DNA of 64,000 nt, taken from Ascidia mentula (taxonomy: Eukaryota > Chordata > Ascidiacea > Phlebobranchia > Ascidiidae). Positions within the stretch are counted from its first letter, which is position 1, and each line of letters begins with the position of its first letter. Below, one piece after another: positions 41,611-64,000 of the stretch. Both the position numbers and the translations under genes were made by a program. Below the pieces are notes generated by a model. That model saw nothing but the letters and a program-made list of their open reading frames with translations, searched no databases and was not told the DNA's origin. The DNA lies in the NCBI GenBank assembly GCA_947561715.1, contig OX387197.1:15435001-15499000 (forward strand). Direction: 5' to 3'.

Positions 41611-41728
41611 ATAGGCTGGACTCTGTTTTTTTCACGACCCACTTAACAATGGGCGAGATAGGGCCTCTGTTTTCTTCGCGACCCACTTAACAATGGGCGA
41701 GATAGGGCCGAAGTTAAGACTGGGTGGG
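41611..41728 (+). repeat. 118-bp fused A-A unit (deletion junction GGGCC/TCTG)
   Basis: Two A units are joined by a 30-bp deletion running from the GGGCC of the first to the TCTG of the second head, leaving 74+74-30 = 118 bp. The first half carries TTCACGACCC. At most one base (C) of microhomology is visible. Confidence 0.9.
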
Positions 41729-42883
41729 ATAGGCTGGACTCTGTTTTTTTCGAGCCCCAAGCCCACTTAACAATGGGCGACATAGGCTGGACTCTGTTTT
41801 TTTCGAGCCCCAAGCCCACTTAACAATGGGAGACATAGGCTGTACTCTGTTTTTTTCGAGCCCCAAGCCCACTTAACAATGGGAGACATAGGCTGGACTC
41901 TGTTTTTTTCGCGACCCACTTAACAATGGGCGAGATAGGGCCGAAATTAAGACTGGGTGGGATAGGCTGGACTCTGTTTTCTTCGCGACCCACTTAACAA
42001 TGGGCGAGATAGGGCCGAAGTTAAGACTGGGTGGGATAGGCTGGACTCTGTTTTTTTTCGAGCCCCAAGCCCACTTAACAATGGGCGACATAGGCTGGAC
42101 TCTGTTTTTTTCGAGCCCCAAGCCCACTTAACAATGGGCGACATAGGCTGGACTCTGTTTTTTTCGAGCCCCAAGCCCACTTAACAATGGGAGACATAGG
42201 CTGGACTCTGTTTTTTTCGAGCCCCAAGCCCACTTAACAATGGGAGACATAGGCTGGACTCTGTTTTTTTCGCGACCCACTTAACAATGGGCGAGATAGG
42301 GCCGAAATTAAGACTGGGTGGGATAGGCTGGACTCTGTTTTCTTCGCGACCAACTTAACAATGGGCGAGATAGGGCCGAAGTTAAGACTGGGTGGGATAG
42401 GCTGTACTCTGTTTTTTTCGAGCCCCAAGCCCACTTAACAATGGGAGACATAGGCTGGACTCTGTTTTCTTCGCAACCCACTTAACAATGGGCGAGATAG
42501 GGCCGAAGTTAAGACTGGGTGGGATAGGCTGGACTCTGTTTTTTTCGAGCCCCATGCCCACTTAACAATGGGAGACATAGGCTGGACTCTGTTTTTTTCG
42601 AGCCCCAAGCCCACTTAACAATGGGAGACATAGGCTGGACTCTGTTTTTTTCGCGACCCACTTAACAATGTGCGAGATAGGGCCGAAGTTAAGACTGGGT
42701 GGGATAGGCTGGACTCTGTTTTTTTCGAGCCCCAAGCCCACTTAACAATGGGAGACATAGGCTGGACTCTGTTTTTTTCGCGACCCACTTAACAATGGGC
42801 GAGATAGGGCCGAAGTTAAGACTGGGTGGGATAGGCTGGACTCTGTTTTTTTCGAGCCCCAAGCCCACTTAACAATGGGAGAC

Positions 42884-44955
42884 ATAGGCTGGACTCTGTT
42901 TTTTTCGCGACCCACTTAACAATGGGCGAGATAGGGCCGAAGTTAAGACTGGGTGGGATAGGCTGGACTCTGTTTTCTTCGCGACCCACTTAACAATGGT
43001 CGAGATAGGGCCGAAGTTAAGACTGGGTGGGATAGGCTGGACTCTGCTTTTTTCGCGACCCACTTAACAATGGGCGAGATAGGGCCGAAGTTAAGACTGG
43101 GTGGGATAGGCTGGACTCTGTTTTTTTCGAGCCCCAAGCCCACTTAACAATGGGAGACATAGGCTGGACTCTGTTTTTTTCGCGACCCACTTAACAATGG
43201 GCGAGATAGGGCCGAAGTTAAGACTGGGTGGGATAGGCTGGACTCTGTTTTTTTCGAGCCCCAAGCCCACTTAACAATGGGACACATAGGCTGGACTCTG
43301 TTTTTTTCGCGACCCACTTAACAATGGGCGAGATAGGGCCGAAGTTAAGACTGGGTGGGATAGGCTGGACTCTGTTTTTTTCGAGCCCTAAGCCCACTTA
43401 ACAATGGGAGACATAGGCTGGACTCTGTTTTTTTCGCGACCCACTTAACAATGGGCGAGATAGGGCCGAAGTTAAGACTGGGTGGGATAGGCTGGACTCT
43501 GTTTTTTTCGAGCCCCAAGCCCACTTAACAATGGGAGACATAGGCTGGACTCTGTTTTTTTCGCGACCCACTTAACAATGGGCGAGATAGGGCCGAAGTT
43601 AAGACTGGGTGGGATAGGCTGGACTCTGTTTTTTTCGAGCCCCAAGCCCACTTAACAATGGGAGACATAGGCTGGACTCTGTTTTTTTCGCGACCCACTT
43701 AACAATGGGCGAGATAGGGCCGAAGTTAAGACTGGGTGGGATAGGCTGGACTCTGTTTTTTTCGAGCCCCAAGCCCACTTAACAATGGGAGACATAGGCT
43801 GGACTCTGTTTTTTTCGCGACCCACTTAACAATGGGCGAGATAGGGCCGAAGTTAAGACTGGGTGGGATAGGCTGGACTCTGTTTTTTTCGAGCCCCAAG
43901 CCCACTTAACAATGGGAGACATAGGCTGGACTCTGTTTTTTTCGCGACCCACTTAACAATGGGCGAGATAGGGCCGAAGTTAAGACTGGGTGGGATAGGC
44001 TGGACTCTGTTTTCTTCGCGACCCACTTAACAATGGTCGAGATAGGGCCGAAGTTAAGACTGGGTGGGATAGGCTGGACTCTGCTTTTTTCGCGACCCAC
44101 TTAACAATGGGCGAGATAGGGCCGAAGTTAAGGCTGGGTGGGATAGGCTGGACTCTGTTTTTTTCGAGCCCCAAGCCCACTTAACAATGGGAGACATAGG
44201 CTGGACTCTGTTTTTTTCGCGACCCACTTAACAATGGGCGAGATAGGGCCGAAGTTAAGACTGGGTGGGATAGGCTGGACTCTGTTTTTTTCGAGCCCCA
44301 AGCCCACTTAACAATGGGACACATAGGCTGGACTCTGTTTTTTTCGCGACCCACTTAACAATGGGCGAGATAGGGCCGAAGTTAAGACTGGGTGGGATAG
44401 GCTGGACTCTGTTTTTTTCGAGCCCTAAGCCCACTTAACAATGGGAGACATAGGCTGGACTCTGTTTTTTTCGCGACCCACTTAACAATGGGCGAGATAG
44501 GGCCGAAGTTAAGACTGGGTGGGATAGGCTGGACTCTGTTTTTTTCGAGCCCCAAGCCCACTTAACAATGGGAGACATAGGCTGGACTCTGTTTTTTTCG
44601 CGACCCACTTAACAATGGGCGAGATAGGGCCGAAGTTAAGACTGGGTGGGATAGGCTGGACTCTGTTTTTTTCGAGCCCCAAGCCCACTTAACAATGGGA
44701 GACATAGGCTGGACTCTGTTTTTTTCGCGACCCACTTAACAATGGGCGAGATAGGGCCGAAGTTAAGACTGGGTGGGATAGGCTGGACTCTGTTTTTTTC
44801 GAGCCCCAAGCCCACTTAACAATGGGAGACATAGGCTGGACTCTGTTTTTTTCGCGACCCACTTAACAATGGGCGAGATAGGGCCGAAGTTAAGACTGGG
44901 TGGGATAGGCTGGACTCTTTTTTTCGAGCCCCAAGCCCACTTAACAATGGGAGAC
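42884..44955 (+). repeat. 1037-bp higher-order repeat, two tandem copies
   Basis: Copy 1 is 42884-43920 (1037 bp) and copy 2 is 43921-44955 (1035 bp, with two bases lost in one B head: CTCTTTTTTT). Order is A A A B then six AB dimers: nine A and seven B, which sum to 1037 bp. Fixed markers are GGTCGAG in the second A, CTGCTTTTTT in the third, GGACACAT in the second B and CCCTAAG in the third B. The same 1037-bp spacing reappears reversed at 53.8-54.8 kb and forward at 56.2-57.2 kb. Confidence 0.93.
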
Positions 44956-45992
44956 ATAGGCTGGACTCTGTTTTTTTCGCGACCCACTTAACAATGGGCG
45001 AGATAGGGCCGAAGTTAAGACTGGGTGGGATAGGCTGGACTCTGTTTTCTTCGCGACCCACTTAACAATGGTCGAGATAGGGCCGAAGTTAAGACTGGGT
45101 GGGATAGGCTGGACTCTGCTTTTTTCGCGACCCACTTAACAATGGGCGAGATAGGGCCGAAGTTAAGGCTGGGTGGGATAGGCTGGACTCTGTTTTTTTC
45201 GAGCCCCAAGCCCACTTAACAATGGGAGACATAGGCTGGACTCTGTTTTTTTCGCGACCCACTTAACAATGGGCGAGATAGGGCCGAAGTTAAGACTGGG
45301 TGGGATAGGCTGGACTCTGTTTTTTTCGAGCCCCAAGCCCACTTAACAATGGGACACATAGGCTGGACTCTGTTTTTTTCGCGACCCACTTAACAATGGG
45401 CGAGATAGGGCCGAAGTTAAGACTGGGTGGGATAGGCTGGACTCTGTTTTTTTCGAGCCCTAAGCCCACTTAACAATGGGAGACATAGGCTGGACTCTGT
45501 TTTTTTCGCGACCCACTTAACAATGGGCGAGATAGGGCCGAAGTTAAGACTGGGTGGGATAGGCTGGACTCTGTTTTTTTCGAGCCCCAAGCCCACTTAA
45601 CAATGGGAGACATAGGCTGGACTCTGTTTTTTTCGCGACCCACTTAACAATGGGCGAGATAGGGCCGAAGTTAAGACTGGGTGGGATAGGCTGGACTCTG
45701 TTTTTTTCGAGCCCCAAGCCCACTTAACAATGGGAGACATAGGCTGGACTCTGTTTTTTTCGCGACCCACTTAACAATGGGCGAGATAGGGCCGAAGTTA
45801 AGACTGGGTGGGATAGACTGGACTCTGTTTTTTTCGAGCCCCAAGCCCACTTAACAATGGGAGACATAGGCTGGACTCTGTTTTTTTCGCGACCCACTTA
45901 ACAATGGGCGAGATAGGGCCGAAGTTAAGACTGGGTGGGATAGGCTGGACTCTGTTTTTTTCGAGCCCCAAGCCCACTAAACAATGGGAGAC

Positions 45993-46110
45993 ATAGGCTG
46001 GACTCTGTTTTTTTCACGACCCACTTAACAATGGGCGAGATAGGGCCTCGGTTTTCTTCGCGACCCACTTAACAATGGGCGAGATAGGGCCGAAGTTAAG
46101 ACTGGGTGGG
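45993..46110 (+). repeat. 118-bp fused A-A unit, TCGG form
   Basis: Same join and same TTCACGACCC variant as at 41611, with GGGCCTCGG in place of GGGCCTCTG. It follows a B with CACTAAAC. Confidence 0.9.
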
Positions 46111-47939
46111 ATAGGCTGGACTCTGTTTTTTTCGAGCCCCAAGCCCACTTAACAATGGGAGACATAGGCTGGACTCTGTTTTCTTCGCGACCCACTTAAC
46201 AATGGGCGAGATAGGGCCGAAGTTAAGACTAGGTGGGATAGGCTGGACTCTGTTTTTTTCGAGCCCCAAGCCCACTTAACAATGGGCGACATAGGCTGGA
46301 CTCTGTTTTTTTCGAGCCCCAAGCCCACTTAACAATGGGAGACATAGGCTGGACTCTGTTTTTTTCGAGCCCCAAGCCCACTTAACAATGGGAGACATAG
46401 GCTGGACTCTGTTTTTTTCGCGACCCACTTAACAATGGGCGAGATAGGGCCGAAGTTAAGACTGGGTGGGATAGGCTGGACTCTGTTTTTTTCGAGCCCC
46501 AAGCCCACTTAACAATGGGAGACATAGGCTGGACTCTGTTTTTTTCGCGACCCACTTAACAATGGGCGAGATAGGGCCGAAGTTAAGACTGGGTGGGATA
46601 GGCTGGACTCTGTTTTTTTCGAGCCCCAAGCCCACTTAACAATGGGAGACATAGGCTGGACTCTGTTTTTTTCGCGACCCACTTAACAATGGGCGAGATA
46701 GGGCCGAAGTTAAGACTGGGTGGGATAGGCTGGACTCTGTTTTTTTCGAGCCCCAAGCCCACTTAACAATGGGAGACATAGGCTGGACTCTGTTTTTTTC
46801 GCGACCCACTTAACAATGGGCGAGATAGGGCCGAAGTTAAGACTGGGTGGGATAGGCTGGACTCTTTTTTTCGAGCCCCAAGCCCACTTAACAATGGGAG
46901 ACATAGGCTGGACTCTGTTTTTTTCGCGACCCACTTAACAATGGGCGAGATAGGGCCGAAGTTAAGACTGGGTGGGATAGGCTGGACTCTGTTTTCTTCG
47001 CGACCCACTTAACAATGGTCGAGATAGGGCCGAAGTTAAGACTGGGTGGGATAGGCTGGACTCTGCTTTTTTCGCGACCCACTTAACAATGGGCGAGATA
47101 GGGCCGAAGTTAAGGCTGGGTGGGATAGGCTGGACTCTGTTTTTTTCGAGCCCCAAGCCCACTTAACAATGGGAGACATAGGCTGGACTCTGTTTTTTTC
47201 GCGACCCACTTAACAATGGGCGAGATAGGGCCGAAGTTAAGACTGGGTGGGATAGGCTGGACTCTGTTTTTTTCGAGCCCCAAGCCCACTTAACAATGGG
47301 ACACATAGGCTGGACTCTGTTTTTTTCGCGACCCACTTAACAATGGGCGAGATAGGGCCGAAGTTAAGACTGGGTGGGATAGGCTGGACTCTGTTTTTTT
47401 CGAGCCCTAAGCCCACTTAACAATGGGAGACATAGGCTGGACTCTGTTTTTTTCGCGACCCACTTAACAATGGGCGAGATAGGGCCGAAGTTAAGACTGG
47501 GTGGGATAGGCTGGACTCTGTTTTTTTCGAGCCCCAAGCCCACTTAACAATGGGAGACATAGGCTGGACTCTGTTTTTTTCGCGACCCACTTAACAATGG
47601 GCGAGATAGGGCCGAAGTTAAGACTGGGTGGGATAGGCTGGACTCTGTTTTTTTCGAGCCCCAAGCCCACTTAACAATGGGAGACATAGGCTGGACTCTG
47701 TTTTTTTCGCGACCCACTTAACAATGGGCGAGATAGGGCCGAAGTTAAGACTGGGTGGGATAGACTGGACTCTGTTTTTTTCGAGCCCCAAGCCCACTTA
47801 ACAATGGGAGACATAGGCTGGACTCTGTTTTTTTCGCGACCCACTTAACAATGGGCGAGATAGGGCCGAAGTTAAGACTGGGTGGGATAGGCTGGACTCT
47901 GTTTTTTTCGAGCCCCAAGCCCACTAAACAATGGGAGAC

Positions 47940-48057
47940 ATAGGCTGGACTCTGTTTTTTTCACGACCCACTTAACAATGGGCGAGATAGGGCCTCGGTT
48001 TTCTTCGCGACCCACTTAACAATGGGCGAGATAGGGCCGAAGTTAAGACTGGGTGGG
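47940..48057 (+). repeat. 118-bp fused A-A unit, TCGG form
   Basis: Copy of the 45993 unit exactly 1947 bp later, again after a B with CACTAAAC. It shows that the 1947-bp repeat includes the fused unit. Confidence 0.9.
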
Positions 48058-48548
48058 ATAGGCTGGACTCTGTTTTTTTCGAGCCCCAAGCCCACTTAAC
48101 AATGGGAGACATAGGCTGGACTCTGTTTTCTTCGCGACCCACTTAACAATGGGCGAGATAGGGCCGAAGTTAAGACTAGGTGGGATAGGCTGGACTCTGT
48201 TTTTTTCGAGCCCCAAGCCCACTTAACAATGGGCGACATAGGCTGGACTCTGTTTTTTTCGAGCCCCAAGCCCACTTAACAATGGGAGACATAGGCTGGA
48301 CTCTGTTTTTTTCGAGCCCCAAGCCCACTTAACAATGGGAGACATAGGCTTGACTCTGTTTTTTTCGCGACCCACTTAACAATGGGCGAGATAGGGCCGA
48401 AGTTAAGACTGGGTGGGATAGGCTGGACTCTGTTTTTTTCGAGCCCCAAGCCCACTTAACAATGGGAGACATAGGCTGGACTCTGTTTTTTTCGCGACCC
48501 ACTTAACAATGGGCGAGATAGGGCCGAAGTTAAGACTGGGTGGGATAG

Positions 48549-50232
48549 GCTGGACTCTGTTTTCTTCGCGACCCACTTAACAATGGTCGAGATAGGGCCG
48601 AAGTTAAGACTGGGTGGGATAGGCTGGACTCTGTTTTTTTCGAGCCCCAAGCCCACTTAACAATGGGCGACATAGGCTGGACTCTGTTTTTTTCGAGCCC
48701 CAAGCCCACTTAACAATGGGAGACATAGGCTGGACTCTGTTTTTTTCGAGCCCCAAGCCCACTTAACAATGGGCGACATAGGCTGGACTCTGTTTTTTTC
48801 GCGACCAACTTAACAATGGGCGAGATAGGGCCGAAGTTAAGACTGGGTGGGATAGGCTGGACTCTGTTTTTTTCGAGCCCCAAGCCCACTTAACAATGGG
48901 ACACATAGGCTGGACTCTGTTTTTTTCGCGACCCACTTAACAATGGGCGAGATAGGGCCGAAGTTAAGACTGGGTGGGATAGGCTGGACTCTGTTTTTTT
49001 CGAGCCCCAAGCCCACTTAACAATGGGAGACATAGGCTGGACTCTGTTTTTTTCGCGACCCACTTAACAATGGGCGAGATAGGGCCGAAGTTAAGACTGG
49101 GTGGGATAGGCTGGACTCTGTTTTTTTCGAGCCCCAAGCCCACTTAACAATGGGAGACATAGGCTGGACTCTGTTTTTTTCGCGACCCACTTAACAATGG
49201 GCGAGATAGGGCCGAAGTTAAGACTGGGTGGGATAGGCTGGACTCTGTTTTTTTCGAGCCCCAAGCCCACTTAACAATGGGAGACATAGGCTGGACTCTG
49301 TTTTTTTCGCGACCCACTTAACAATGGGCGAGATAGGGCCGAAGTTAAGACTGGGTGGGATAGGCTGGACTCTGTTTTCTTCGCGACCCACTTAACAATG
49401 GTCGAGATAGGGCCGAAGTTAAGACTGGGTGGGATAGGCTGGACTCTGCTTTTTTCGCGACCCACTTAACAATGGGCGAGATAGGGCCGAAGTTAAGGCT
49501 GGGTGGGATAGGCTGGACTCTGTTTTTTTCGAGCCCCAAGCCCACTTAACAATGGGAGACATAGGCTGGACTCTGTTTTTTTCGCGACCCACTTAACAAT
49601 GGGCGAGATAGGGCCGAAGTTAAGACTGGGTGGGATAGGCTGGACTCTGTATTTTTCGAGCCCCAAGCCCACTTAACAATGGGAGACATAGGCTGGACTC
49701 TGTTTTTTTCGCGACCCACTTAACAATGGGCGAGATAGGGCCGAAGTTAAGACTGGGTGGGATAGGCTGGACTCTGTTTTTTTCGAGCCCTAAGCCCACT
49801 TAACAATGGGAGACATAGGCTGGACTCTGTTTTTTTCGCGACCCACTTAACAATGGGCGAGATAGGGCCGAAGTTAAGACTGGGTGGGATAGGCTGGACT
49901 CTGTTTTTTTCGAGCCCCAAGCCCACTTAACAATGGGAGACATAGGCTGGACTCTGTTTTTTTCGCGACCCACTTAACAATGGGCGAGATAGGGCCGAAG
50001 TTAAGACTGGGTGGGATAGGCTGGACTCTGTTTTCTTCGCGACCCACTTAACAATGGTCGAGATAGGGCCGAAGTTAAGACTGGGTGGGATAGGCTGGAC
50101 TCTGTTTTTTTCGAGCCCCAAGCCCACTTAACAATGGGCGACATAGGCTGGACTCTGTTTTCTTCGCGACCCACTTAACAATGGGCGAGATAGGGCCGAA
50201 GTTAAGACTGGGTGGGATAGGCTGGACTCTGT
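48549..50232 (+). repeat. Forward arm next to inversion junction J1
   Basis: Domain II units with GGTCGAG A units near 48.59, 49.40 and 50.06 kb. Read backward from J1, its landmarks mirror those right of J1 with a constant extra 280 bp on the right, and mirror those right of J3 with almost no offset. Confidence 0.88.
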
Positions 50233-50239
50233 CCTTCGG
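50224..50239. other. Inversion junction J1 (forward to reverse)
   Basis: A forward A or B head ends at CTCTGT (50232). One C that fits neither flank lies at 50233, and the reversed A extension starts with CTTCGG at 50234. The join forms a perfect short hairpin: GGAC (50224-50227), loop TCT, GTCC (50231-50234). The same sequence recurs reversed at J3. Confidence 0.93.
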
Positions 50240-53200
50240 CCCTATCTCGCCCATTGTTAAGTGGGTCGCGAAAAAAACAGAGTCCAGCCTATGTCTCCCA
50301 TTGTTAAGTGGGCTTGGGGCTCGAAAAAAACAGAGTCCAGCCTATCCCACCCAGTCTTAACTTCGGCCCTATCTCGCCCATTGTTAAGTGGGTCGCGAAA
50401 AAAACAGAGTCAAGCCTATGTCTCCCATTGTTAAGTGGGCTTGGGGCTCGAAAAAAACAGAGTCCAGCCTATGTCTCCCATTGTTAAGTGGGCTTGGGGC
50501 TCGAAAAAAACAGAGTCCAGCCTATCCCACCCAGTCTTAACTTCGGCCCTATCTCGCCCATTGTTAAGTGGGTCGCGAAGAAAACAGAGTCCAGCCTATG
50601 TCGCCCATTGTTAAGTGGGCTTGGGGCTCGAAAAAAACAGAGTCCAGCCTATCCCACCCAGTCTTAACTTCGGCCCTATCTCGACCATTGTTAAGTGGGT
50701 CGCGAAGAAAACAGAGTCCAGCCTATCCCACCCAGTCTTAACTTCGGCCCTATCTCGCCCATTGTTAAGTGGGTCGCGAAAAAAACAGAGTCCAGCCTAT
50801 GTCTCCCATTGTTAAGTGGGCTTGGGGCTCGAAAAAAACAGAGTCCAGCCTATCCCACCCAGTCTTAACTTCGGCCCTATCTCGCCCATTGTTAAGTGGG
50901 TCGCGAAAAAAACAGAGTCCAGCCTATGTCTCCCATTGTTAAGTGGGCTTAGGGCTCGAAAAAAACAGAGTCCAGCCTATCCCACCCAGTCTTAACTTCG
51001 GCCCTATCTCGCCCATTGTTAAGTGGGTCGCGAAAAAAACAGAGTCCAGCCTATGTCTCCCATTGTTAAGTGGGCTTGGGGCTCGAAAAAAACAGAGTCC
51101 AGCCTATCCCACCCAGTCTTAACTTCGGCCCTATCTCGCCCATTGTTAAGTGGGTCGCGAAAAAAACAGAGTCCAGCCTATGTCTCCCATTGTTAAGTGG
51201 GCTTGGGGCTCGAAAAAAACAGAGTCCAGCCTATCCCACCCAGCCTTAACTTCGGCCCTATCTCGCCCATTGTTAAGTGGGTCGCGAAAAAAGCAGAGTC
51301 CAGCCTATCCCACCCAGTCTTAACTTCGGCCCTATCTCGACCATTGTTAAGTGGGTCGCGAAGAAAACAGAGTCCAGCCTATCCCACCCAGTCTTAACTT
51401 CGGCCCTATCTCGCCCATTGTTAAGTGGGTCGCGAAAAAAACAGAGTCCAGCCTATGTCTCCCATTGTTAAGTGGGCTTGGGGCTCGAAAAAAACAGAGT
51501 CCAGCCTATCCCACCCAGTCTTAACTTCGGCCCTATCTCGCCCATTGTTAAGTGGGTCGCGAAAAAAACAGAGTCCAGCCTATGTCTCCCATTGTTAAGT
51601 GGGCTTGGGGCTCGAAAAAAACAGAGTCCAGCCTATCCCACCCAGTCTTAACTTCGGCCCTATCTCGCCCATTGTTAAGTGGGTCGCGAAAAAAATAGAG
51701 TCCAGCCTATGTCTCCCATTGTTAAGTGGGCTTGGGGCTCGAAAAAAACAGAGTCCAGCCTATCCCACCCAGTCTTAACTTCGGCCCTATCTCGCCCATT
51801 GTTAAGTGGGTCGCGAAAAAAACAGAGTCCAGCCTATGTGTCCCATTGTTAAGTGGGCTTGGGGCTCGAAAAAAACAGAGTCCAGCCTATCCCACCCAGT
51901 CTTAACTTCGGCCCTATCTCGCCCATTGTTAAGTTGGTCGCGAAAAAAACAGAGTCCAGCCTATGTCGCCCATTGTTAAGTGGGCTTGGGGCTCGAAAAA
52001 AACAGAGTCCAGCCTATGTCTCCCATTGTTAAGTGGGCTTGGGGCTCGAAAAAAACAGAGTCCAGCCTATGTCGCCCATTGTTAAGTGGGCTTGGGGCTC
52101 GAAAAAAACAGAGTCCAGCCTATCCCACCCAGTCTTAACTTCGGCCCTATCTCGACCATTGTTAAGTGGGTCGCGAAGAAAACAGAGTCCAGCCTATCCC
52201 ACCCAGTCTTAACTTCGGCCCTATCTCGCCCATTGTTAAGTGGGTCGCGAAAAAAACAGAGTCCAGCCTATGTCTCCCATTGTTAAGTGGGCTTGGGGCT
52301 CGAAAAAAACAGAGTCCAGCCTATCCCACCCAGTCTTAACTTCGGCCCTATCTCGCCCATTGTTAAGTGGGTCGCGAAAAAAACAGAGTCAAGCCTATGT
52401 CTCCCATTGTTAAGTGGGCTTGGGGCTCGAAAAAAACAGAGTCCAGCCTATGTCTCCCATTGTTAAGTGGGCTTGGGGCTCGAAAAAAACAGAGTCCAGC
52501 CTATGTCTCCCATTGTTTAGTGGGCTTGGGGCTCGAAAAAAACAGAGTCCAGCCTATCCCACCCAGTCTTAACTTCGGCCCTATCTCGCCCATTGTTAAG
52601 TGGGTCGCGAAAAAAACAGAGTCCAGCCTATGTCTCCCATTGTTAAGTGGGCTTGGGGCTCGAAAAAAACAGAGTCCAGTCTATCCCACCCAGTCTTAAC
52701 TTCGGCCCTATCTCGCCCATTGTTAAGTGGGCCGCGAAAAAAACAGAGTCCAGCCTATGTCTCCCATTGTTAAGTGGGCTTGGGGCTCGAAAAAAACAGA
52801 GTCCAGCCTATCCCACCCAGTCTTAACTTCGGCCCTATCTCGCCCATTGTTAAGTGGGTCGCGAAAAAAACAGAGTCCAGCCTATGTCTCCCATTGTTAA
52901 GTGGGCTTGGGGCTCGAAAAAAACAGAGTCCAGCCTATCCCACCCAGTCTTAACTTCGGCCCTATCTCGCCCATTGTTAAGTGGGTCGCGAAAAAAACAG
53001 AGTCCAGCCTATGTCTCCCATTGTTAAGTGGGCTTAGGGCTCGAAAAAAACAGAGTCCAGCCTATCCCACCCAGTCTTAACTTCGGCCCTATCTCGCCCA
53101 TTGTTAAGTGGGTCGCGAAAAAAACAGAGTCCAGCCTATGTCTCCCATTGTTAAGTGGGCTTGGGGCTCGAAAAAAACAGAGTCCAGTCTATCCCACCCA

Positions 53201-55361
53201 GTCTTAACTTCGGCCCTATCTCGCCCATTGTTAAGTGGGTCGCGAAAAAAACAGAGTCCAGCCTATGTCTCCCATTGTTAAGTGGGCTTGGGGCTCGAAA
53301 AAAACAGAGTCCAGCCTATCCCACCCAGTCTTAACTTCGGCCCTATCTCGCCCATTGTTAAGTGGGTCGCGAAAAAAACAGAGTCCAGCCTATGTCTCCC
53401 ATTGTTAAGTGGGCTTGGGGCTCGAAAAAAACAGAGTCCAGCCTATCCCACCCAGTCTTAACTTCGGCCCTATCTCGCCCATTGTTAAGTGGGTCGCGAA
53501 AAAAACAGAGTCCAGCCTATGTCTCCCATTGTTAAGTGGGCTTAGGGCTCGAAAAAAACAGAGTCCAGCCTATCCCACCCAGTCTTAACTTCGGCCCTAT
53601 CTCGCCCATTGTTAAGTGGGTCGCGAAAAAAACAGAGTCCAGCCTATGTGTCCCATTGTTAAGTGGGCTTGGGGCTCGAAAAAAACAGAGTCCAGCCTAT
53701 CCCACCCAGTCTTAACTTCGGCCCTATCTCGCCCATTGTTAAGTGGGTCGCGAAAAAAACAGAGTCCAGCCTATGTCTCCCATTGTTAAGTGGGCTTGGG
53801 GCTCGAAAAAAACAGAGTCCAGCCTATCCCACCCAGCCTTAACTTCGGCCCTATCTCGCCCATTGTTAAGTGGGTCGCGAAAAAAGCAGAGTCCAGCCTA
53901 TCCCACCCAGTCTTAACTTCGGCCCTATCTCGACCATTGTTAAGTGGGTCGCGAAGAAAACAGAGTCCAGCCTATCCCACCCAGTCTTAACTTCGGCCCT
54001 ATCTCGCCCATTGTTAAGTGGGTCGCGAAAAAAACAGAGTCCAGCCTATGTCTCCCATTGTTAAGTGGGCTTGGGGCTCGAAAAAAACAGAGTCCAGCCT
54101 ATCCCACCCAGTCTTAACTTCGGCCCTATCTCGCCCATTGTTAAGTGGGTCGCGAAAAAAACAGAGTCCAGCCTATGTCTCCCATTGTTAAGTGGGCTTG
54201 GGGCTCGAAAAAAACAGAGTCCAGCCTATCCCACCCAGTCTTAACTTCGGCCCTATCTCGCCCATTGTTAAGTGGGTCGCGAAAAAAACAGAGTCCAGCC
54301 TATGTCTCCCATTGTTAAGTGGGCTTGGGGCTCGAAAAAAACAGAGTCCAGCCTATCCCACCCAGTCTTAACTTCGGCCCTATCTCGCCCATTGTTAAGT
54401 GGGTCGCGAAAAAAACAGAGTCCAGCCTATGTCTCCCATTGTTAAGTGGGCTTGGGGCTCGAAAAAAACAGAGTCCAGCCTATCCCACCCAGTCTTAACT
54501 TCGGCCCTATCTCGCCCATTGTTAAGTGGGTCGCGAAAAAAACAGAGTCCAGCCTATGTCTCCCATTGTTAAGTGGGCTTAGGGCTCGAAAAAAACAGAG
54601 TCCAGCCTATCCCACCCAGTCTTAACTTCGGCCCTATCTCGCCCATTGTTAAGTGGGTCGCGAAAAAAACAGAGTCCAGCCTATGTGTCCCATTGTTAAG
54701 TGGGCTTGGGGCTCGAAAAAAACAGAGTCCAGCCTATCCCACCCAGTCTTAACTTCGGCCCTATCTCGCCCATTGTTAAGTGGGTCGCGAAAAAAACAGA
54801 GTCCAGCCTATGTCTCCCATTGTTAAGTGGGCTTGGGGCTCGAAAAAAACAGAGTCCAGCCTATCCCACCCAGCCTTAACTTCGGCCCTATCTCGCCCAT
54901 TGTTAAGTGGGTCGCGAAAAAAGCAGAGTCCAGCCTATCCCACCCAGTCTTAACTTCGGCCCTATCTCGACCATTGTTAAGTGGGTCGCGAAGAAAACAG
55001 AGTCCAGCCTATCCCACCCAGTCTTAACTTCGGCCCTATCTCGCCCATTGTTAAGTGGGTCGCGAAAAAAACAGAGTCCAGCCTATGTCTCCCATTGTTA
55101 AGTGGGCTTGGGGCTCGAAAAAAACAGAGTCCAGCCTATCCCACCCAGTCTTAACTTCGGCCCTATCTCGCCCATTGTTAAGTGGGTCGCGAAAAAAACA
55201 GAGTCCAGCCTATGTCTCCCATTGTTAAGTGGGCTTGGGGCTCGAAAAAAACAGAGTCCAGCCTATCCCACCCAGTCTTAACTTCGGCCCTATCTCGCCC
55301 ATTGTTAAGTGGGTCGCGAAAAAAACAGAGTCCAGCCTATGTCTCCCATTGTTAAGTGGGC
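50233..55361 (-). repeat. Inverted satellite segment R1
   Basis: All units read on the minus strand between J1 and J2. Landmarks from J1 outward match the reversed order left of J1 after an extra 280 bp (50234 to about 50513). The arm carries three GGTCGAG A units within 3 kb of J1 and 1037-bp-spaced copies at 53.8 and 54.8 kb. Relative to its partner arm (55921-61010) it lacks 469 bp near 52.4-52.5 kb and has 508 bp extra near 52.7-53.2 kb. Confidence 0.93.
52680..53188 (-). repeat. 508-bp step (four AB dimers) present only in arm R1
   Basis: The AGTCTATCCC variant (reverse of ATAGACTGG) occurs at 52678 and again 508 bp later, 4 x 127. The partner arm has it once, at 58093. A four-dimer duplication here, or loss in the partner, explains the difference. 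Confidence 0.82.
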
Positions 55362-55366
55362 CGAAG
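55351..55366. other. Inversion junction J2 (reverse to forward)
   Basis: A reversed B unit read as far as GTTAAGTGGGC continues as the forward A extension GGGCCGAAG. GGGC at 55358-55361 belongs to both sides, a 4-bp microhomology. At the level of unit order the flanks are nearly self-complementary about position 55324 with a spacer of about 70 bp (55231-55288 against 55360-55417). At the level of rare markers the arms are separated by about 0.56 kb (55362-55921). Confidence 0.92.
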
Positions 55367-58270
55367 TTAAGACTGGGTGGGATAGGCTGGACTCTGTTTT
55401 TTTCGAGCCCCAAGCCCACTTAACAATGGGAGACATAGGCTGGACTCTGTTTTTTTCGCGACCCACTTAACAATGGGCGAGATAGGGCCGAAGTTAAGAC
55501 TGGGTGGGATAGGCTGGACTCTGTTTTTTTCGAGCCCCAAGCCCACTTAACAATGGGACACATAGGCTGGACTCTGTTTTTTTCGCGACCCACTTAACAA
55601 TGGGCGAGATAGGGCCGAAGTTAAGACTGGGTGGGATAGGCTGGACTCTGTTTTTTTCGAGCCCTAAGCCCACTTAACAATGGGAGACATAGGCTGGACT
55701 CTGTTTTTTTCGCGACCCACTTAACAATGGGCGAGATAGGGCCGAAGTTAAGACTGGGTGGGATAGGCTGGACTCTGTTTTTTTCGAGCCCCAAGCCCAC
55801 TTAACAATGGGAGACATAGGCTGGACTCTGTTTTTTTCGCGACCCACTTAACAATGGGCGAGATAGGGCCGAAGTTAAGACTGGGTGGGATAGGCTGGAC
55901 TCTGTTTTTTTCGAGCCCCAAGCCCACTTAACAATGGGAGACATAGGCTGGACTCTGTTTTTTTCGCGACCCACTTAACAATGGGCGAGATAGGGCCGAA
56001 GTTAAGACTGGGTGGGATAGGCTGGACTCTGTTTTTTTCGAGCCCCAAGCCCACTTAACAATGGGAGACATAGGCTGGACTCTGTTTTTTTCGCGACCCA
56101 CTTAACAATGGGCGAGATAGGGCCGAAGTTAAGACTGGGTGGGATAGGCTGGACTCTGTTTTTTTCGAGCCCCAAGCCCACTTAACAATGGGAGACATAG
56201 GCTGGACTCTGTTTTTTTCGCGACCCACTTAACAATGGGCGAGATAGGGCCGAAGTTAAGACTGGGTGGGATAGGCTGGACTCTGTTTTCTTCGCGACCC
56301 ACTTAACAATGGTCGAGATAGGGCCGAAGTTAAGACTGGGTGGGATAGGCTGGACTCTGCTTTTTTCGCGACCCACTTAACAATGGGCGAGATAGGGCCG
56401 AAGTTAAGGCTGGGTGGGATAGGCTGGACTCTGTTTTTTTCGAGCCCCAAGCCCACTTAACAATGGGAGACATAGGCTGGACTCTGTTTTTTTCGCGACC
56501 CACTTAACAATGGGCGAGATAGGGCCGAAGTTAAGACTGGGTGGGATAGGCTGGACTCTGTTTTTTTCGAGCCCCAAGCCCACTTAACAATGGGACACAT
56601 AGGCTGGACTCTGTTTTTTTCGCGACCCACTTAACAATGGGCGAGATAGGGCCGAAGTTAAGACTGGGTGGGATAGGCTGGACTCTGTTTTTTTCGAGCC
56701 CTAAGCCCACTTAACAATGGGAGACATAGGCTGGACTCTGTTTTTTTCGCGACCCACTTAACAATGGGCGAGATAGGGCCGAAGTTAAGACTGGGTGGGA
56801 TAGGCTGGACTCTGTTTTTTTCGAGCCCCAAGCCCACTTAACAATGGGAGACATAGGCTGGACTCTGTTTTTTTCGCGACCCACTTAACAATGGGCGAGA
56901 TAGGGCCGAAGTTAAGACTGGGTGGGATAGGCTGGACTCTGTTTTTTTCGAGCCCCAAGCCCACTTAACAATGGGAGACATAGGCTGGACTCTGTTTTTT
57001 TCGCGACCCACTTAACAATGGGCGAGATAGGGCCGAAGTTAAGACTGGGTGGGATAGGCTGGACTCTGTTTTTTTCGAGCCCCAAGCCCACTTAACAATG
57101 GGAGACATAGGCTGGACTCTGTTTTTTTCGCGACCCACTTAACAATGGGCGAGATAGGGCCGAAGTTAAGACTGGGTGGGATAGGCTGGACTCTGTTTTT
57201 TTCGAGCCCCAAGCCCACTTAACAATGGGAGACATAGGCTGGACTCTGTTTTTTTCGCGACCCACTTAACAATGGGCGAGATAGGGCCGAAGTTAAGACT
57301 GGGTGGGATAGGCTGGACTCTGTTTTCTTCGCGACCCACTTAACAATGGTCGAGATAGGGCCGAAGTTAAGACTGGGTGGGATAGGCTGGACTCTGCTTT
57401 TTTCGCGACCCACTTAACAATGGGCGAGATAGGGCCGAAGTTAAGGCTGGGTGGGATAGGCTGGACTCTGTTTTTTTCGAGCCCCAAGCCCACTTAACAA
57501 TGGGAGACATAGGCTGGACTCTGTTTTTTTCGCGACCCACTTAACAATGGGCGAGATAGGGCCGAAGTTAAGACTGGGTGGGATAGGCTGGACTCTGTTT
57601 TTTTCGAGCCCCAAGCCCACTTAACAATGGGACACATAGGCTGGACTCTGTTTTTTTCGCGACCCACTTAACAATGGGCGAGATAGGGCCGAAGTTAAGA
57701 CTGGGTGGGATAGGCTGGACTCTGTTTTTTTCGAGCCCTAAGCCCACTTAACAATGGGAGACATAGGCTGGACTCTGTTTTTTTCGCGACCCACTTAACA
57801 ATGGGCGAGATAGGGCCGAAGTTAAGACTGGGTGGGATAGGCTGGACTCTGTTTTTTTCGAGCCCCAAGCCCACTTAACAATGGGAGACATAGGCTGGAC
57901 TCTGTTTTTTTCGCGACCCACTTAACAATGGGCGAGATAGGGCCGAAGTTAAGACTGGGTGGGATAGGCTGGACTCTGTTTTTTTCGAGCCCCAAGCCCA
58001 CTTAACAATGGGAGACATAGGCTGGACTCTGTTTTTTTCGCGACCCACTTAACAATGGGCGAGATAGGGCCGAAGTTAAGACTGGGTGGGATAGACTGGA
58101 CTCTGTTTTTTTCGAGCCCCAAGCCCACTTAACAATGGGAGACATAGGCTGGACTCTGTTTTTTTCGCGACCCACTTAACAATGGGCGAGATAGGGCCGA
58201 AGTTAAGACTGGGTGGGATAGGCTGGACTCTGTTTTTTTCGAGCCCCAAGCCCACTAAACAATGGGAGAC

Positions 58271-58388
58271 ATAGGCTGGACTCTGTTTTTTTCACGACCC
58301 ACTTAACAATGGGCGAGATAGGGCCTCTGTTTTCTTCGCGACCCACTTAACAATGGGCGAGATAGGGCCGAAGTTAAGACTGGGTGGG
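58271..58388 (+). repeat. 118-bp fused A-A unit, TCTG form
   Basis: First of two fused units separated by one B that has its own changes (GAGCTCCAAG, CATTTAAC). Confidence 0.9.
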
Positions 58389-58441
58389 ATAGGCTGGACT
58401 CTGTTTTTTTCGAGCTCCAAGCCCATTTAACAATGGGAGAC

Positions 58442-58559
58442 ATAGGCTGGACTCTGTTTTTTTCACGACCCACTTAACAATGGGCGAGATAGGGCCTCGG
58501 TTTTCTTCGCGACCCACTTAACAATGGGCGAGATAGGGCCGAAGTTAAGACTGGGTGGG
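58442..58559 (+). repeat. 118-bp fused A-A unit, TCGG form
   Basis: Second fused unit of the pair, 171 bp (118+53) after the first. Confidence 0.9.
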
Positions 58560-61000
58560 ATAGGCTGGACTCTGTTTTTTTCGAGCCCCAAGCCCACTTA
58601 ACAATGGGAGACATAGGCTGGACTCTGTTTTCTTCGCGACCCACTTAACAATGGGCGAGATAGGGCCGAAGTTAAGACTAGGTGGGATAGGCTGGACTCT
58701 GTTTTTTTCGAGCCCCAAGCCCACTTAACAATGGGCGACATAGGCTGGACTCTGTTTTTTTCGAGCCCCAAGCCCACTTAACAATGGGAGACATAGGCTG
58801 GACTCTGTTTTTTTCGAGCCCCAAGCCCACTTAACAATGGGAGACATAGGCTTGACTCTGTTTTTTTCGCGACCCACTTAACAATGGGCGAGATAGGGCC
58901 GAAGTTAAGACTGGGTGGGATAGGCTGGACTCTGTTTTTTTCGAGCCCCAAGCCCACTTAACAATGGGAGACATAGGCTGGACTCTGTTTTTTTCGCGAC
59001 CCACTTAACAATGGGCGAGATAGGGCCGAAGTTAAGACTGGGTGGGATAGGCTGGACTCTGTTTTCTTCGCGACCCACTTAACAATGGTCGAGATAGGGC
59101 CGAAGTTAAGACTGGGTGGGATAGGCTGGACTCTGTTTTTTTCGAGCCCCAAGCCCACTTAACAATGGGCGACATAGGCTGGACTCTGTTTTTTTCGAGC
59201 CCCAAGCCCACTTAAAAATGGGAGACATAGGCTGGACTCTGTTTTTTTCGAGCCCCAAGCCCACTTAACAATGGGCGACATAGGCTGGACTCTGTTTTTT
59301 TCGCGACCAACTTAACAATGGGCGAGATAGGGCCGAAGTTAAGACTGGGTGGGATAGGCTGGACTCTGTTTTTTTCGAGCCCCAAGCCCACTTAACAATG
59401 GGACACATAGGCTGGACTCTGTTTTTTTCGCGACCCACTTAACAATGGGCGAGATAGGGCCGAAGTTAAGACTGGGTGGGATAGGCTGGACTCTGTTTTT
59501 TTCGAGCCCCAAGCCCACTTAACAATGGGAGACATAGGCTGGACTCTGTTTTTTTCGCGACCCACTTAACAATGGGCGAGATAGGGCCGAAGTTAAGACT
59601 GGGTGGGATAGGCTGGACTCTGTTTTTTTCGAGCCCCAAGCCCACTTAACAATGGGAGACATAGGCTGGACTCTGTTTTTTTCGCGACCCACTTAACAAT
59701 GGGCGAGATAGGGCCGAAGTTAAGACTGGGTGGGATAGGCTGGACTCTGTTTTTTTCGAGCCCCAAGCCCACTTAACAATGGGAGACATAGGCTGGACTC
59801 TGTTTTTTTCGCGACCCACTTAACAATGGGCGAGATAGGGCCGAAGTTAAGACTGGGTGGGATAGGCTGGACTCTGTTTTCTTCGCGACCCACTTAACAA
59901 TGGTCGAGATAGGGCCGAAGTTAAGACTGGGTGGGATAGGCTGGACTCTGCTTTTTTCGCGACCCACTTAACAATGGGCGAGATAGGGCCGAAGTTAAGG
60001 CTGGGTGGGATAGGCTGGACTCTGTTTTTTTCGAGCCCCAAGCCCACTTAACAATGGGAGACATAGGCTGGACTCTGTTTTTTTCGCGACCCACTTAACA
60101 ATGGGCGAGATAGGGCCGAAGTTAAGACTGGGTGGGATAGGCTGGACTCTGTTTTTTTCGAGCCCCAAGCCCACTTAACAATGGGAGACATAGGCTGGAC
60201 TCTGTTTTTTTCGCGACCCACTTAACAATCGGCGAGATAGGGCCGAAGTTAAGACTGGGTGGGATAGGCTGGACTCTGTTTTTTTCGAGCCCTAAGCCCA
60301 CTTAACAATGGGAGACATAGGCTGGACTCTGTTTTTTTCGCGACCCACTTAACAATGGGCGAGATAGGGCCGAAGTTAAGACTGGGTGGGATAGGCTGGA
60401 CTCTGTTTTTTTCGAGCCCCAAGCCCACTTAACAATGGGAGACATAGGCTGGACTCTGTTTTTTTCGCGACCCACTTAACAATGGGCGAGATAGGGCCGA
60501 AGTTAAGACTGGGTGGGATAGGCTGGACTCTGTTTTCTTCGCGACCCACTTAACAATGGTCGAGATAGGGCCGAAGTTAAGACTGGGTGGGATAGGCTGG
60601 ACTCTGTTTTTTTCGAGCCCCAAGCCCACTTAACAATGGGCGACATAGGCTGGACTCTGTTTTCTTCGCGACCCACTTAACAATGGGCGAGATAGGGCCG
60701 AAGTTAAGACTGGGTGGGATAGGCTGGACTCTGTTTTTTTCGAGCCCCAAGCCCACTTAACAATGGGAGACATAGGCTGGACTCTGTTTTTTTCGAGCCC
60801 CAAGCCCACTTAACAATGGGAGACATAGGCTTGACTCTGTTTTTTTCGCGACCCACTTAACAATGGGCGAGATAGGGCCGAAGTTAAGACTGGGTGGGAT
60901 AGGCTGGACTCTGTTTTTTTCGAGCCCCAAGCCCACTTAACAATGGGAGACATAGGCTGGACTCTGTTTTTTTCGCGACCCACTTAACAATGGGCGAGAT

Positions 61001-61020
61001 AGGGCCGAAGGACAGAGTCC
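61001..61020. other. Inversion junction J3 (forward to reverse), copy of J1
   Basis: AGGGCCGAAG (61001-61010) is followed by an extra G (61011) and then ACAGAGTCC. This is the exact reverse complement of J1 including the untemplated base, with hairpin GGAC, loop AGA, GTCC at 61010-61020. Confidence 0.93.
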
Positions 61021-63186
61021 AGCCTATCCCACCCAGTCTTAACTTCGGCCCTATCTCGCCCATTGTTAAGTGGGTCGCGAAGAAAACAGAGTCCAGCCTA
61101 TGTCGCCCATTGTTAAGTGGGCTTGGGGCTCGAAAAAAACAGAGTCCAGCCTATCCCACCCAGTCTTAACTTCGGCCCTATCTCGACCATTGTTAAGTGG
61201 GTCGCGAAGAAAACAGAGTCCAGCCTATCCCACCCAGTCTTAACTTCGGCCCTATCTCGCCCATTGTTAAGTGGGTCGCGAAAAAAACAGAGTCCAGCCT
61301 ATGTCTCCCATTGTTAAGTGGGCTTGGGGCTCGAAAAAAACAGAGTCCAGCCTATCCCACCCAGTCTTAACTTCGGCCCTATCTCGCCCATTGTTAAGTG
61401 GGTCGCGAAAAAAACAGAGTCCAGCCTATGTCTCCCATTGTTAAGTGGGCTTAGGGCTCGAAAAAAACAGAGTCCAGCCTATCCCACCCAGTCTTAACTT
61501 CGGCCCTATCTCGCCCATTGTTAAGTGGGTCGCGAAAAAAACAGAGTCCAGCCTATGTCTCCCATTGTTAAGTGGGCTTGGGGCTCGAAAAAAACAGAGT
61601 CCAGCCTATCCCACCCAGTCTTAACTTCGGCCCTATCTCGCCCATTGTTAAGTGGGTCGCGAAAAAAACAGAGTCCAGCCTATGTCTCCCATTGTTAAGT
61701 GGGCTTGGGGCTCGAAAAAAACAGAGTCCAGCCTATCCCACCCAGCCTTAACTTCGGCCCTATCTCGCCCATTGTTAAGTGGGTCGCGAAAAAAGCAGAG
61801 TCCAGCCTATCCCACCCAGTCTTAACTTCGGCCCTATCTCGACCATTGTTAAGTGGGTCGCGAAGAAAACAGAGTCCAGCCTATCCCACCCAGTCTTAAC
61901 TTCGGCCCTATCTCGCCCATTGTTAAGTGGGTCGCGAAAAAAACAGAGTCCAGCCTATGTCTCCCATTGTTAAGTGGGCTTGGGGCTCGAAAAAAACAGA
62001 GTCCAGCCTATCCCACCCAGTCTTAACTTCGGCCCTATCTCGCCCATTGTTAAGTGGGTCGCGAAAAAAACAGAGTCCAGCCTATGTCTCCCATTGTTAA
62101 GTGGGCTTGGGGCTCGAAAAAAACAGAGTCCAGCCTATCCCACCCAGTCTTAACTTCGGCCCTATCTCGCCCATTGTTAAGTGGGTCGCGAAAAAAACAG
62201 AGTCCAGCCTATGTCTCCCATTGTTAAGTGGGCTTGGGGCTCGAAAAAAACAGAGTCCAGCCTATCCCACCCAGTCTTAACTTCGGCCCTATCTCGCCCA
62301 TTGTTAAGTGGGTCGCGAAAAAAACAGAGTCCAGCCTATGTGTCCCATTGTTAAGTGGGCTTGGGGCTCGAAAAAAACAGAGTCCAGCCTATCCCACCCA
62401 GTCTTAACTTCGGCCCTATCTCGCCCATTGTTAAGTTGGTCGCGAAAAAAACAGAGTCCAGCCTATGTCGCCCATTGTTAAGTGGGCTTGGGGCTCGAAA
62501 AAAACAGAGTCCAGCCTATGTCTCCCATTGTTAAGTGGGCTTGGGGCTCGAAAAAAACAGAGTCCAGCCTATGTCGCCCATTGTTAAGTGGGCTTGGGGC
62601 TCGAAAAAAACAGAGTCCAGCCTATCCCACCCAGTCTTAACTTCGGCCCTATCTCGACCATTGTTAAGTGGGTCGCGAAGAAAACAGAGTCCAGCCTATC
62701 CCACCCAGTCTTAACTTCGGCCCTATCTCGCCCATTGTTAAGTGGGTCGCGAAAAAAACAGAGTCCAGCCTATGTCTCCCATTGTTAAGTGGGCTTGGGG
62801 CTCGAAAAAAACAGAGTCCAGCCTATCCCACCCAGTCTTAACTTCGGCCCTATCTCGCCCATTGTTAAGTGGGTCGCGAAAAAAACAGAGTCAAGCCTAT
62901 GTCTCCCATTGTTAAGTGGGCTTGGGGCTCGAAAAAAACAGAGTCCAGCCTATGTCTCCCATTGTTAAGTGGGCTTGGGGCTCGAAAAAAACAGAGTCCA
63001 GCCTATGTCGCCCATTGTTAAGTGGGCTTGGGGCTCGAAAAAAACAGAGTCCAGCCTATCCCACCTAGTCTTAACTTCGGCCCTATCTCGCCCATTGTTA
63101 AGTGGGTCGCGAAGAAAACAGAGTCCAGCCTATGTCTCCCATTGTTAAGTGGGCTTGGGGCTCGAAAAAAACAGAGTCCAGCCTAT

Positions 63187-63304
63187 CCCACCCAGTCTTA
63201 ACTTCGGCCCTATCTCGCCCATTGTTAAGTGGGTCGCGAAGAAAACCGAGGCCCTATCTCGCCCATTGTTAAGTGGGTCGTGAAAAAAACAGAGTCCAGC
63301 CTAT
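63187..63304 (-). repeat. 118-bp fused A-A unit, TCGG form, reversed
   Basis: Reverse-complement counterpart of 58442-58559 in the last inverted segment. It reads ACCGAGGCC on the plus strand. Confidence 0.9.
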
Positions 63305-63357
63305 GTCTCCCATTGTTAAATGGGCTTGGAGCTCGAAAAAAACAGAGTCCAGCCTAT

Positions 63358-63475
63358 CCCACCCAGTCTTAACTTCGGCCCTATCTCGCCCATTGTTAAG
63401 TGGGTCGCGAAGAAAACAGAGGCCCTATCTCGCCCATTGTTAAGTGGGTCGTGAAAAAAACAGAGTCCAGCCTAT
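63358..63475 (-). repeat. 118-bp fused A-A unit, TCTG form, reversed
   Basis: Counterpart of 58271-58388, again 171 bp from its partner and separated by the B with GAGCTC, so the pair was copied as a block. Confidence 0.9.
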
Positions 63476-64000
63476 GTCTCCCATTGTTTAGTGGGCTTGG
63501 GGCTCGAAAAAAACAGAGTCCAGCCTATCCCACCCAGTCTTAACTTCGGCCCTATCTCGCCCATTGTTAAGTGGGTCGCGAAAAAAACAGAGTCCAGCCT
63601 ATGTCTCCCATTGTTAAGTGGGCTTGGGGCTCGAAAAAAACAGAGTCCAGTCTATCCCACCCAGTCTTAACTTCGGCCCTATCTCGACCATTGTTAAGTG
63701 GGTCGCGAAGAAAACAGAGTCCAGCCTATCCCACCCAGTCTTAACTTCGGCCCTATCTCGCCCATTGTTAAGTGGGTCGCGAAAAAAACAGAGTCCAGCC
63801 TATGTCTCCCATTGTTAAGTGGGCTTGGGGCTCGAAAAAAACAGAGTCCAGCCTATCCCACCCAGTCTTAACTTCGGCCCTATCTCGCCCATTGTTAAGT
63901 GGGTCGCGAAAAAAACAGAGTCAAGCCTATGTCTCCCATTGTTAAGTGGGCTTGGGGCTCGAAAAAAACAGAGTCCAGCCTATGTCTCCCATTGTTAAGT

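What the first reader, a model, noticed from the sequence alone, without database searches (positions are those of the whole stretch)
47200..64000. Nested palindromes inside a satellite: forward, reverse, forward, reverse
Unit orientation flips at 50233, about 55360 and 61011. Landmark distances show that 50234-55361 mirrors 55921-61010, and that the symmetry continues outward (47.2-50.23 kb mirrors 61.01-64 kb). A second, older symmetry lies about J1 with a 280-bp asymmetric centre. Two successive fold-back duplications explain this: one at J1, then one at J2 that copied J1 and made J3. Most satellite arrays keep one orientation over tens of kilobases, so recent kilobase-scale palindromes in one would be unusual and potentially unstable. 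A chimeric assembly of fold-back long reads would give a similar picture.
Basis: partly seen in the sequence, partly recalled or inferred. Interest (0 to 1): 0.85.

Follow-up and report, generated by a model that had tools for sequence, protein, structure and literature searches.

The report
Nested palindromes in sea-squirt satellite DNA
A repetitive DNA block on chromosome 1 of a sea squirt appears to have been copied back on itself several times in the recent past, leaving nested mirror-image segments; it looks like the scar of a break or stalled copying, though the raw sequencing reads have not been checked.

Summary
Confirmed, corrected and extended. The window is chromosome 1 of Ascidia mentula (scaffold length matches to the base), in a satellite of 74- and 53-bp monomers. 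Orientation flips at 50,232|233 (J1), 55,361|362 (J2) and 61,011|012 (J3). Arms match at 99.90-99.93% in one register (next best 74-78%). J3 is the reverse complement of J1; the J1 55-mer occurs only at these two places in the assembly and the J2 42-mer once. So J1 came first and J2 copied it; no mutation dates the interval. The window cuts a larger complex: ten flips in 58 kb. Blocks B-D resemble mainly the left array (20 of 33 probes, 6 the right), blocks E and F the right array (64 of 67). They meet at J4 (67,354|355, outside the window). Best reading: both ends of one break or collapsed fork folded back, were copied and joined. An assembly fault exists 17 kb beyond the window: a 5.8-kb unmerged contig overlap adding two false flips. 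J1-J3 carry private differences and are spaced within HiFi read length, so are probably real. Reads were not checked.

The parts
1..50232 (+). Left satellite array (block A at its right end), + orientation throughout; monomers of 74 bp and 53 bp whose consensus shares its first 24 bp. It begins 4.1 kb left of the window.
43082..50232 (+). Part of the left array (block A) that blocks B, C and D most resemble; holds a 1,947-bp tandem duplication (44,427-46,403 = 46,374-48,350) that the matches show once in C and D
50232..50233 (.). J1, + to - junction; one extra C and no microhomology when read against block C (left side) and the monomer consensus (right side); the 55-mer across it occurs only here and, inverted, at J3
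50233..55361 (-). Block B, inverted copy of block A; 50,233-50,509 is the asymmetric centre of J1; 52,508-53,036 is changed relative to the other copies and is better matched by the right array
55361..55362 (.). J2, - to + junction with 4-bp microhomology (GGGC); 42-mer across it unique in the assembly
55362..61011 (+). Block C, reverse complement of B; 55,362-55,921 is the asymmetric centre of J2
61011..61012 (.). J3, + to - junction, exact reverse complement of J1 over the 55 bases searched
61012..64000 (-). Block D, reverse complement of A (also of C), continuing outside the window to 67,354 (J4), where it meets a + block that matches the right-hand array

Best explanation
A recent run of fold-back (inverted) duplications inside a satellite array that was + on both sides. 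Step 1 (shown by sequence): the left array, read to 50,232, continues as its own reverse complement, starting 277 bp further on (J1). Step 2 (shown): block B (5.1 kb) again continues as its own reverse complement with a 560-bp offset (J2), so that C and D are the reverse complement of A|B and J3 is a copy of J1. Step 3 (shown for E and F, only partly for two small blocks g1 and g2 that follow): right of J4 the blocks match, in alternating orientation, the right-hand + array (108.5-127 kb in window coordinates). Step 5 (inferred, weak): J1 and J2 came in quick succession, perhaps in one episode. No function is implied; it is a scar of repair.
For: Register-specific arms at 99.90-99.93%. J1 sequence twice, J2 once in the assembly. 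One-kilobase probes, best match left / right / within 1%: B 6/2/2 of 10, C 7/1/3 of 11, D 7/3/2 of 12; E 0/21/0 of 21, F1 0/6/0 of 6, E2 0/4/0 of 4, F 1/33/2 of 36 (a recount; F1 and E2 are the pieces next to the N gap). Four variable sites in 1,998 four-way columns, all private. Asymmetric centres and 0-4 bp microhomology resemble fold-back inverted duplications (PMC3907307, passages seen). Nine of the 12 flip sites found by anchor patterns in the assembly lie in this 58 kb.
Against: No reads were inspected. The same complex holds an N gap that is an unmerged overlap and an exact 3,676-bp direct copy, so the assembler was in difficulty nearby. Six of 33 B, C and D probes match the right array better than the left and 7 tie, and the small blocks g1 and g2 are mixed (left/right/tie g1 1/2/1 of 4, g2 1/4/0 of 5), so the two-source picture is not clean. 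Centres of 277 and 560 bp lie below the 766-70,466 bp range reported for human fold-backs. J1 has no microhomology. Zero mutations between J1 and J2 has probability 0.135 even if that interval was as long as the time since.
Confidence: 0.72

Rival explanations
1. Assembly artefact: hifiasm walked the same stretch twice in opposite directions, stitched the second haplotype in reverse, or used chimeric fold-back reads.
For: Contig 1 tail and contig 2 head at the N gap (81,419-81,618) are the same 5.8 kb, 0 mismatches and three 1-base indels, so two of the ten flips are probably false. A 3,676-bp direct copy without any difference lies at 99,344-103,019 / 104,765-108,440. The deposited assembly is not fully phased, and private differences between the copies would also be expected if C and D were the other haplotype joined in reverse at J2.
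Against: No N lies between 15,421,001 and 15,516,418, so J1-J4 are in one gap-free stretch. A, B, C and D differ by private substitutions and private length changes, which one stretch assembled twice would not show. A junction as abrupt as J2 needs reads that cross it, and fold-back reads from missed adapters should have no asymmetric centre (recalled), yet J1/J3 have 277 bp and J2 560 bp. J1-J2, J2-J3 and J3-J4 are 5.1, 5.7 and 6.3 kb apart, within 12-20 kb fragments at 74-fold coverage. Assembly-wide QV is 64.9, though it may be lower in satellites.
Confidence: 0.15
2. Breakage-fusion-bridge cycles: sister chromatids fused at J1, the dicentric broke, fused again at J2. The duplications are the same as in the best explanation, only the route differs, so the two odds overlap.
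For: A|B|C|D with J3 = rc(J1) is the classic nested product (product recalled).
Against: The scaffold continues for 12.4 Mb to the right of the complex, so no terminal loss in the assembly; U-type sister fusion leaves no spacer according to PMC3907307 (passages), while here the centres are 277 and 560 bp.
Confidence: 0.2
3. Functional macro-dyad symmetry of a centromere, kept by selection, as proposed for Tribolium beetles.
For: Multi-kilobase inverted subarrays in a mid-chromosome satellite; PMC13081366 describes such symmetries and proposes that they matter.
Against: Tribolium inversion sites are conserved and recur; here J1 recurs only as its own copy J3 and J2 is unique, and 54 kb to the left and 77 kb to the right of the complex show no flip (the right stretch holds a second N gap).
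Confidence: 0.06
4. A simple inversion, or several, of array segments without duplication.
For: Orientation alternates +/-/+/-.
Against: Inverted blocks are copies of sequence still present next to them, at 99.9% in one register.
Confidence: 0.02

Closest known systems
Satellite macro-dyad symmetries of Tribolium madens, T. freemani and T. castaneum (PMC13081366; 12 passages and part 1 of 2 of the discussion seen)
   Same: Kilobase to tens-of-kilobase inverted subarrays within a satellite in a probable (peri)centromere
   Different: There the flips are many, with conserved inversion sites. Here the flips found cluster in 58 kb, are private, nearly identical and nested, and the rest of the array sampled is in long one-way blocks. 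Different animal group (ascidian); the satellites were not compared by sequence here.
Fold-back inverted duplications with a disomic spacer in human germline (PMC3907307; passages seen)
   Same: Inverted duplication with an asymmetric centre; 4-bp microhomology at J2 lies in the reported 2-8 bp
   Different: Human cases go with terminal deletions, translocations or rings and have spacers of 766-70,466 bp; here the event is internal, nested and two-sided, with centres of 277 and 560 bp in the window and no microhomology at J1
Breakage-fusion-bridge amplification (recalled; also named in passages of PMC3907307)
   Same: Nested palindromes, inner junction copied by the outer one
   Different: No loss of the distal part of the scaffold

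Membership tests
Fold-back inverted duplication | Inverted copy next to its source, near-identical arms | tested here: met
Fold-back inverted duplication | Asymmetric centre (spacer) between the arms | tested here: met
   277 bp at J1/J3 and 560 bp at J2; the published range starts at 766 bp
Fold-back inverted duplication | Short inverted microhomology at the junction | tested here: inconclusive
   J1 0 bp plus 1 nt, J2 4 bp, J4 1 bp; beta 1, gamma 2 and the flip at 104,764 1 bp, these last three and one side of J1 read against the monomer consensus. Random mean 0.67; P 0.021 without J1 and 0.044 with it
Fold-back inverted duplication | Terminal deletion, translocation or dicentric intermediate | tested here: not met
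   Array and scaffold continue on the right; so filed as working like, not as a member of, the human class
Tribolium-type macro-dyad satellite | Multi-kilobase inverted subarrays | tested here: met
Tribolium-type macro-dyad satellite | Conserved, recurrent inversion sites | tested here: not met
   J1 only at J1/J3, J2 once. The flip at 102,405 does recur at 107,826, but within the 3,676-bp direct copy, and beta recurs only in the contig overlap
Tribolium-type macro-dyad satellite | Seen on raw long reads | not testable with these tools
   no reads on hand
Centromere | CENP-A or kinetochore binding | not testable with these tools
   only position: sampled satellite from 15.43 Mb to between 17.43 and 17.53 Mb of 27.92 Mb
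Breakage-fusion-bridge product | Loss of the distal chromosome end | tested here: not met
   12.4 Mb of scaffold follow; telomere not looked for
Simple inversion | No duplicated arms | tested here: not met

The most novel reading that the evidence does not exclude
A readable fossil of one germline accident in a candidate centromere: both ends of a single break or collapsed fork in a one-way satellite array folded back, copied themselves (left end twice, nested; right end at least twice) and were then joined at J4, adding about 50 kb. This would show that fold-back copying, and not only unequal exchange, builds and reorients satellite arrays.
Probability: 0.4. Interest if true: 0.62.

Novelty: new variant of a known kind. 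Interest (0 to 1): 0.45.

Why it matters
How satellite arrays change orientation is seldom visible, because old flips are blurred by homogenisation. Here the junctions, offsets and private mutations are still sharp, so the order of events can be read and tested on public reads. If the reads bear it out, it gives another animal group beside Tribolium with multi-kilobase palindromes in a satellite, but with flips that look accidental instead of conserved. It also marks a place where a finished-looking assembly carries a false duplication.

Tried and rejected
Simple inversion: rejected, because the inverted blocks duplicate sequence that is still present next door.

A MAFFT alignment of A-D was confounded by alternative repeat registers and was not used; columns fixed by the palindrome centres were used instead (1,998 of block A's columns, those outward of 48,235 were left out because B leaves the register there). 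Gapped pairwise alignments of whole blocks gave lower identities (B-C 99.70%, A-D 99.65%, A-C 99.42%), part of which is register error. A first fixed-distance comparison of the contig ends gave 441 mismatches in 5,827 because of 1-base indels; the gapped alignment replaced it. The second N gap (15,590,866) was tested for a like overlap without a clear result.

Rfam at gathering thresholds: 0 matches in the window. ORFs of 150 aa or more from ATG/GTG/TTG in the window: 0. Two rare satellite variants as probes for arrays elsewhere gave hits only on C1 between 15.476 and 15.665 Mb. A text search for the 15-base satellite start found no paper. One search listed 8 papers, each with 0 occurrences of 'Ascidia mentula'; one search listed 8, none with a title on ascidian satellites; one search found two papers with 'macro-dyad', one seen in part, the other in the listing only. 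Searches were used as listings. One search, by genome span, did not find the organism; one search did.
Full report
What the window is. It is G000:C1:15,435,001-15,499,000 of a 195.8-Mb assembly. C1 is 27,920,005 bp, exactly the longest scaffold of Ascidia mentula kaAscMent1.1 (PMC11109543, parts 1 and 2 of 3 read). The assembly on hand (195.84 Mb, 79 contigs) is slightly smaller than published (196.98 Mb, 95 scaffolds), which I did not resolve. The mitochondrial COX1 reads conserved glycines at AGA/AGG, the ascidian code: of 4 conserved blocks tested under 5 codes, 3 match only under table 13 and the fourth under none (the blocks are recalled). The assembly was made from 74-fold HiFi data of 12-20 kb fragments with hifiasm, purge_dups and YaHS, QV 64.9.

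The satellite. The window is built of a 74-bp and a 53-bp monomer (mean identity to consensus 99.2% and 99.3% for the 274 and 270 monomers of exactly those lengths in the left array; monomers of other apparent lengths were left out). An exact 38-mer occurs 4,118 times forward and 3,112 times reverse in the assembly. Samples of chromosome 1 give + satellite from 15.431 to 15.98 Mb, non-satellite at 15.992-16.03 Mb, - satellite from 16.04 to 16.78 Mb (one sample, at 16.63 Mb, reads only N) and + satellite from 16.83 to 17.43 Mb; the samples at 17.53 and 17.73 Mb are not satellite. From sampled densities this one locus could account for about all copies; that is an estimate from small samples, and arrays on other chromosomes were not excluded directly.

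Check of the observation. Orientation flips at J1 50,232|233, J2 55,361|362 and J3 61,011|012. Arms and mismatches: J1 2 in 1,998; J2 4 in 4,581 outer and 0 in 2,325 inner; J3 2 in 2,675. In the right register the arms agree at 99.90-99.93%; the next best ungapped register in the stretches scanned gives 74-78%. The J1 55-mer occurs twice in the assembly, at J1 (+) and J3 (-); the J2 42-mer once.

Order and timing. J3 is the reverse complement of J1, 277-bp centre included, so J1 existed when J2 was made. In 1,998 columns with all four copies (A 48,235-50,232) only 4 vary, each in a single copy: A one, B one, C two, D none. No site has A different from B with D like A and C like B, as a mutation between J1 and J2 would give. 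That interval is therefore not visibly long: at most about 7.5e-4 per base (95%) against 5.0e-4 since J2; but zero has probability 0.135 if both were equally long. Larger private differences exist too: a 1,947-bp tandem copy in A that C and D show once, a changed stretch in B, about 1,030 bp more in D. That these arose after J2 is my reading of which registers match. Counting them as three further changes would lower the probability to about 0.03, a rough figure of mine that mixes kinds of change.

The larger complex. In 15,421,001-15,679,000 the array is + for 54 kb, then flips ten times in 58 kb, then is + for 77 kb and, after a 19-kb insertion, beyond. Probes of up to 1 kb (steps of 500) were matched to the left array (-4.1 to 50.2 kb in window coordinates) and to a part of the right array (107.9-185.2 kb). 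Best match left / right / within 1% of score: B 6/2/2 of 10, C 7/1/3 of 11, D 7/3/2 of 12; E (67,355-78,077) 0/21/0 of 21, F1 0/6/0 of 6, E2 0/4/0 of 4, F (84,105-102,400) 1/33/2 of 36, g1 1/2/1 of 4, g2 1/4/0 of 5 (positions). So E and F clearly come from the right array, and B, C and D mostly from the left; their exceptions lie at 52.2-53.7, 57.9 and 63.0-65.0 kb, where copies have changed, and the arrays share higher-order units. g1 and g2 are mixed. The change of source falls at J4 (67,354|355).

The assembly fault. An N gap of 200 bases lies at 81,419-81,618. The 5,824 bases before it and the start of the next contig are the same sequence, 0 mismatches, three 1-base indels. Merged, this would leave one palindrome, E-centre-F, with arms of 10,040 bp (2 mismatches) and a 1,195-bp centre; two of the ten flips vanish. 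Its 21 kb exceed the 12-20 kb fragments, which may explain the break in the contig (inference). A second suspicious feature is the exact 3,676-bp direct copy 99,344-103,019 = 104,765-108,440, which begins at a flip. Both lie outside the window.

How widespread flips are. Anchor patterns for flips (+ to - with 1-122 bp between anchors, - to + with 32-92 bp; other spacings and changed anchors were not searched) found 12 sites in the assembly, all on C1: 9 in this 58 kb (8 without the false one) and 3 elsewhere (16,036,955; 16,184,702; 16,188,427). At least one more change of orientation, between 16.78 and 16.83 Mb, is implied by the samples and was not caught. By this count the complex stands out within its own array.

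Mechanism. The fold-back junctions join opposite strands with an offset (277 bp at J1/J3, 560 at J2, 1,195 at beta, about 1,290 at gamma), and the junctions read have 0-4 bp of microhomology; for beta, gamma, the flip at 104,764 and one side of J1 the ancestor beyond the junction was taken from the monomer consensus. Random + to - junctions in this satellite have a mean of 0.67 bp; the observed mean is mildly higher (P 0.021 without J1, 0.044 with it), which I do not lean on. Human fold-back duplications have spacers of 766-70,466 bp and 2-8 bp microhomology in 13 of 21 junctions (PMC3907307, passages). The picture fits fold-back or sister-template copying at a break or collapsed fork. That two cascades, one from each side, meet at a single joint with 1 bp of microhomology (J4) suggests that both ends of one break were processed and then rejoined; this is inference. 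Breakage-fusion-bridge gives the same nesting but should lose the distal arm, which is present in the assembly.

Compared with what is known. Tribolium satellites show macro-dyad symmetries, and their authors wrote that these were documented only in that genus (PMC13081366); orientation changes in other centromeric arrays, such as human alpha satellite, are recalled and were not looked up. The present case resembles a palindromic satellite but fails the test of conserved inversion sites. I call it a new variant of a known kind: recent, nested, two-sided fold-back duplication inside a satellite. Whether the array is the centromere was not tested.

Limits. No reads, depth, alternate haplotype or CENP-A data were available. 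Gene conversion between arms could hide age. Substitution ages are uncalibrated.

Noticed in passing
C1:15,516,419-15,516,618 (81,419-81,618 in window coordinates, outside the window): The N gap is an unmerged 5.8-kb contig overlap; the assembly duplicates a palindrome junction there.
   Followed up: yes
C1:15,534,344-15,538,019 and 15,539,765-15,543,440: Exact 3,676-bp direct copy, 0 differences, starting at an orientation flip; recent or a second assembly fault.
   Followed up: partly
C1:15.43-17.5 Mb (samples L029-L033, L035-L073): The array changes orientation on a large scale: + part, a non-satellite core at about 15.99-16.03 Mb, - part, then + again.
   Followed up: partly
L071 (C1:15,992,001-15,994,000) and L009:755-1460: The core between the + and - parts holds a tandem of about 717 bp, 96% like a stretch in the array's left flank.
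   Followed up: no
L009:2116-9033: Left flank of the array holds two non-LTR retrotransposon frames (1,158 and 1,001 aa; reverse transcriptase and endonuclease domains in Pfam). The end of the second lies about 0.85 kb from the satellite; this stretch is 90.6% like L072 in the core.
   Followed up: partly
C1:about 15,620,282-15,639,275 and 15,671,833-15,672,895: A 19-kb insertion with an internal tandem array (self-matches at shifts of about 190 bp) and a 1.1-kb insertion end in the same right-hand sequence, seen by eye.
   Followed up: no
C1:16,184,702-16,188,501: Two flips 3.7 kb apart in the - part bound what looks like a lone + block; only its last 1.4 kb was read.
   Followed up: no
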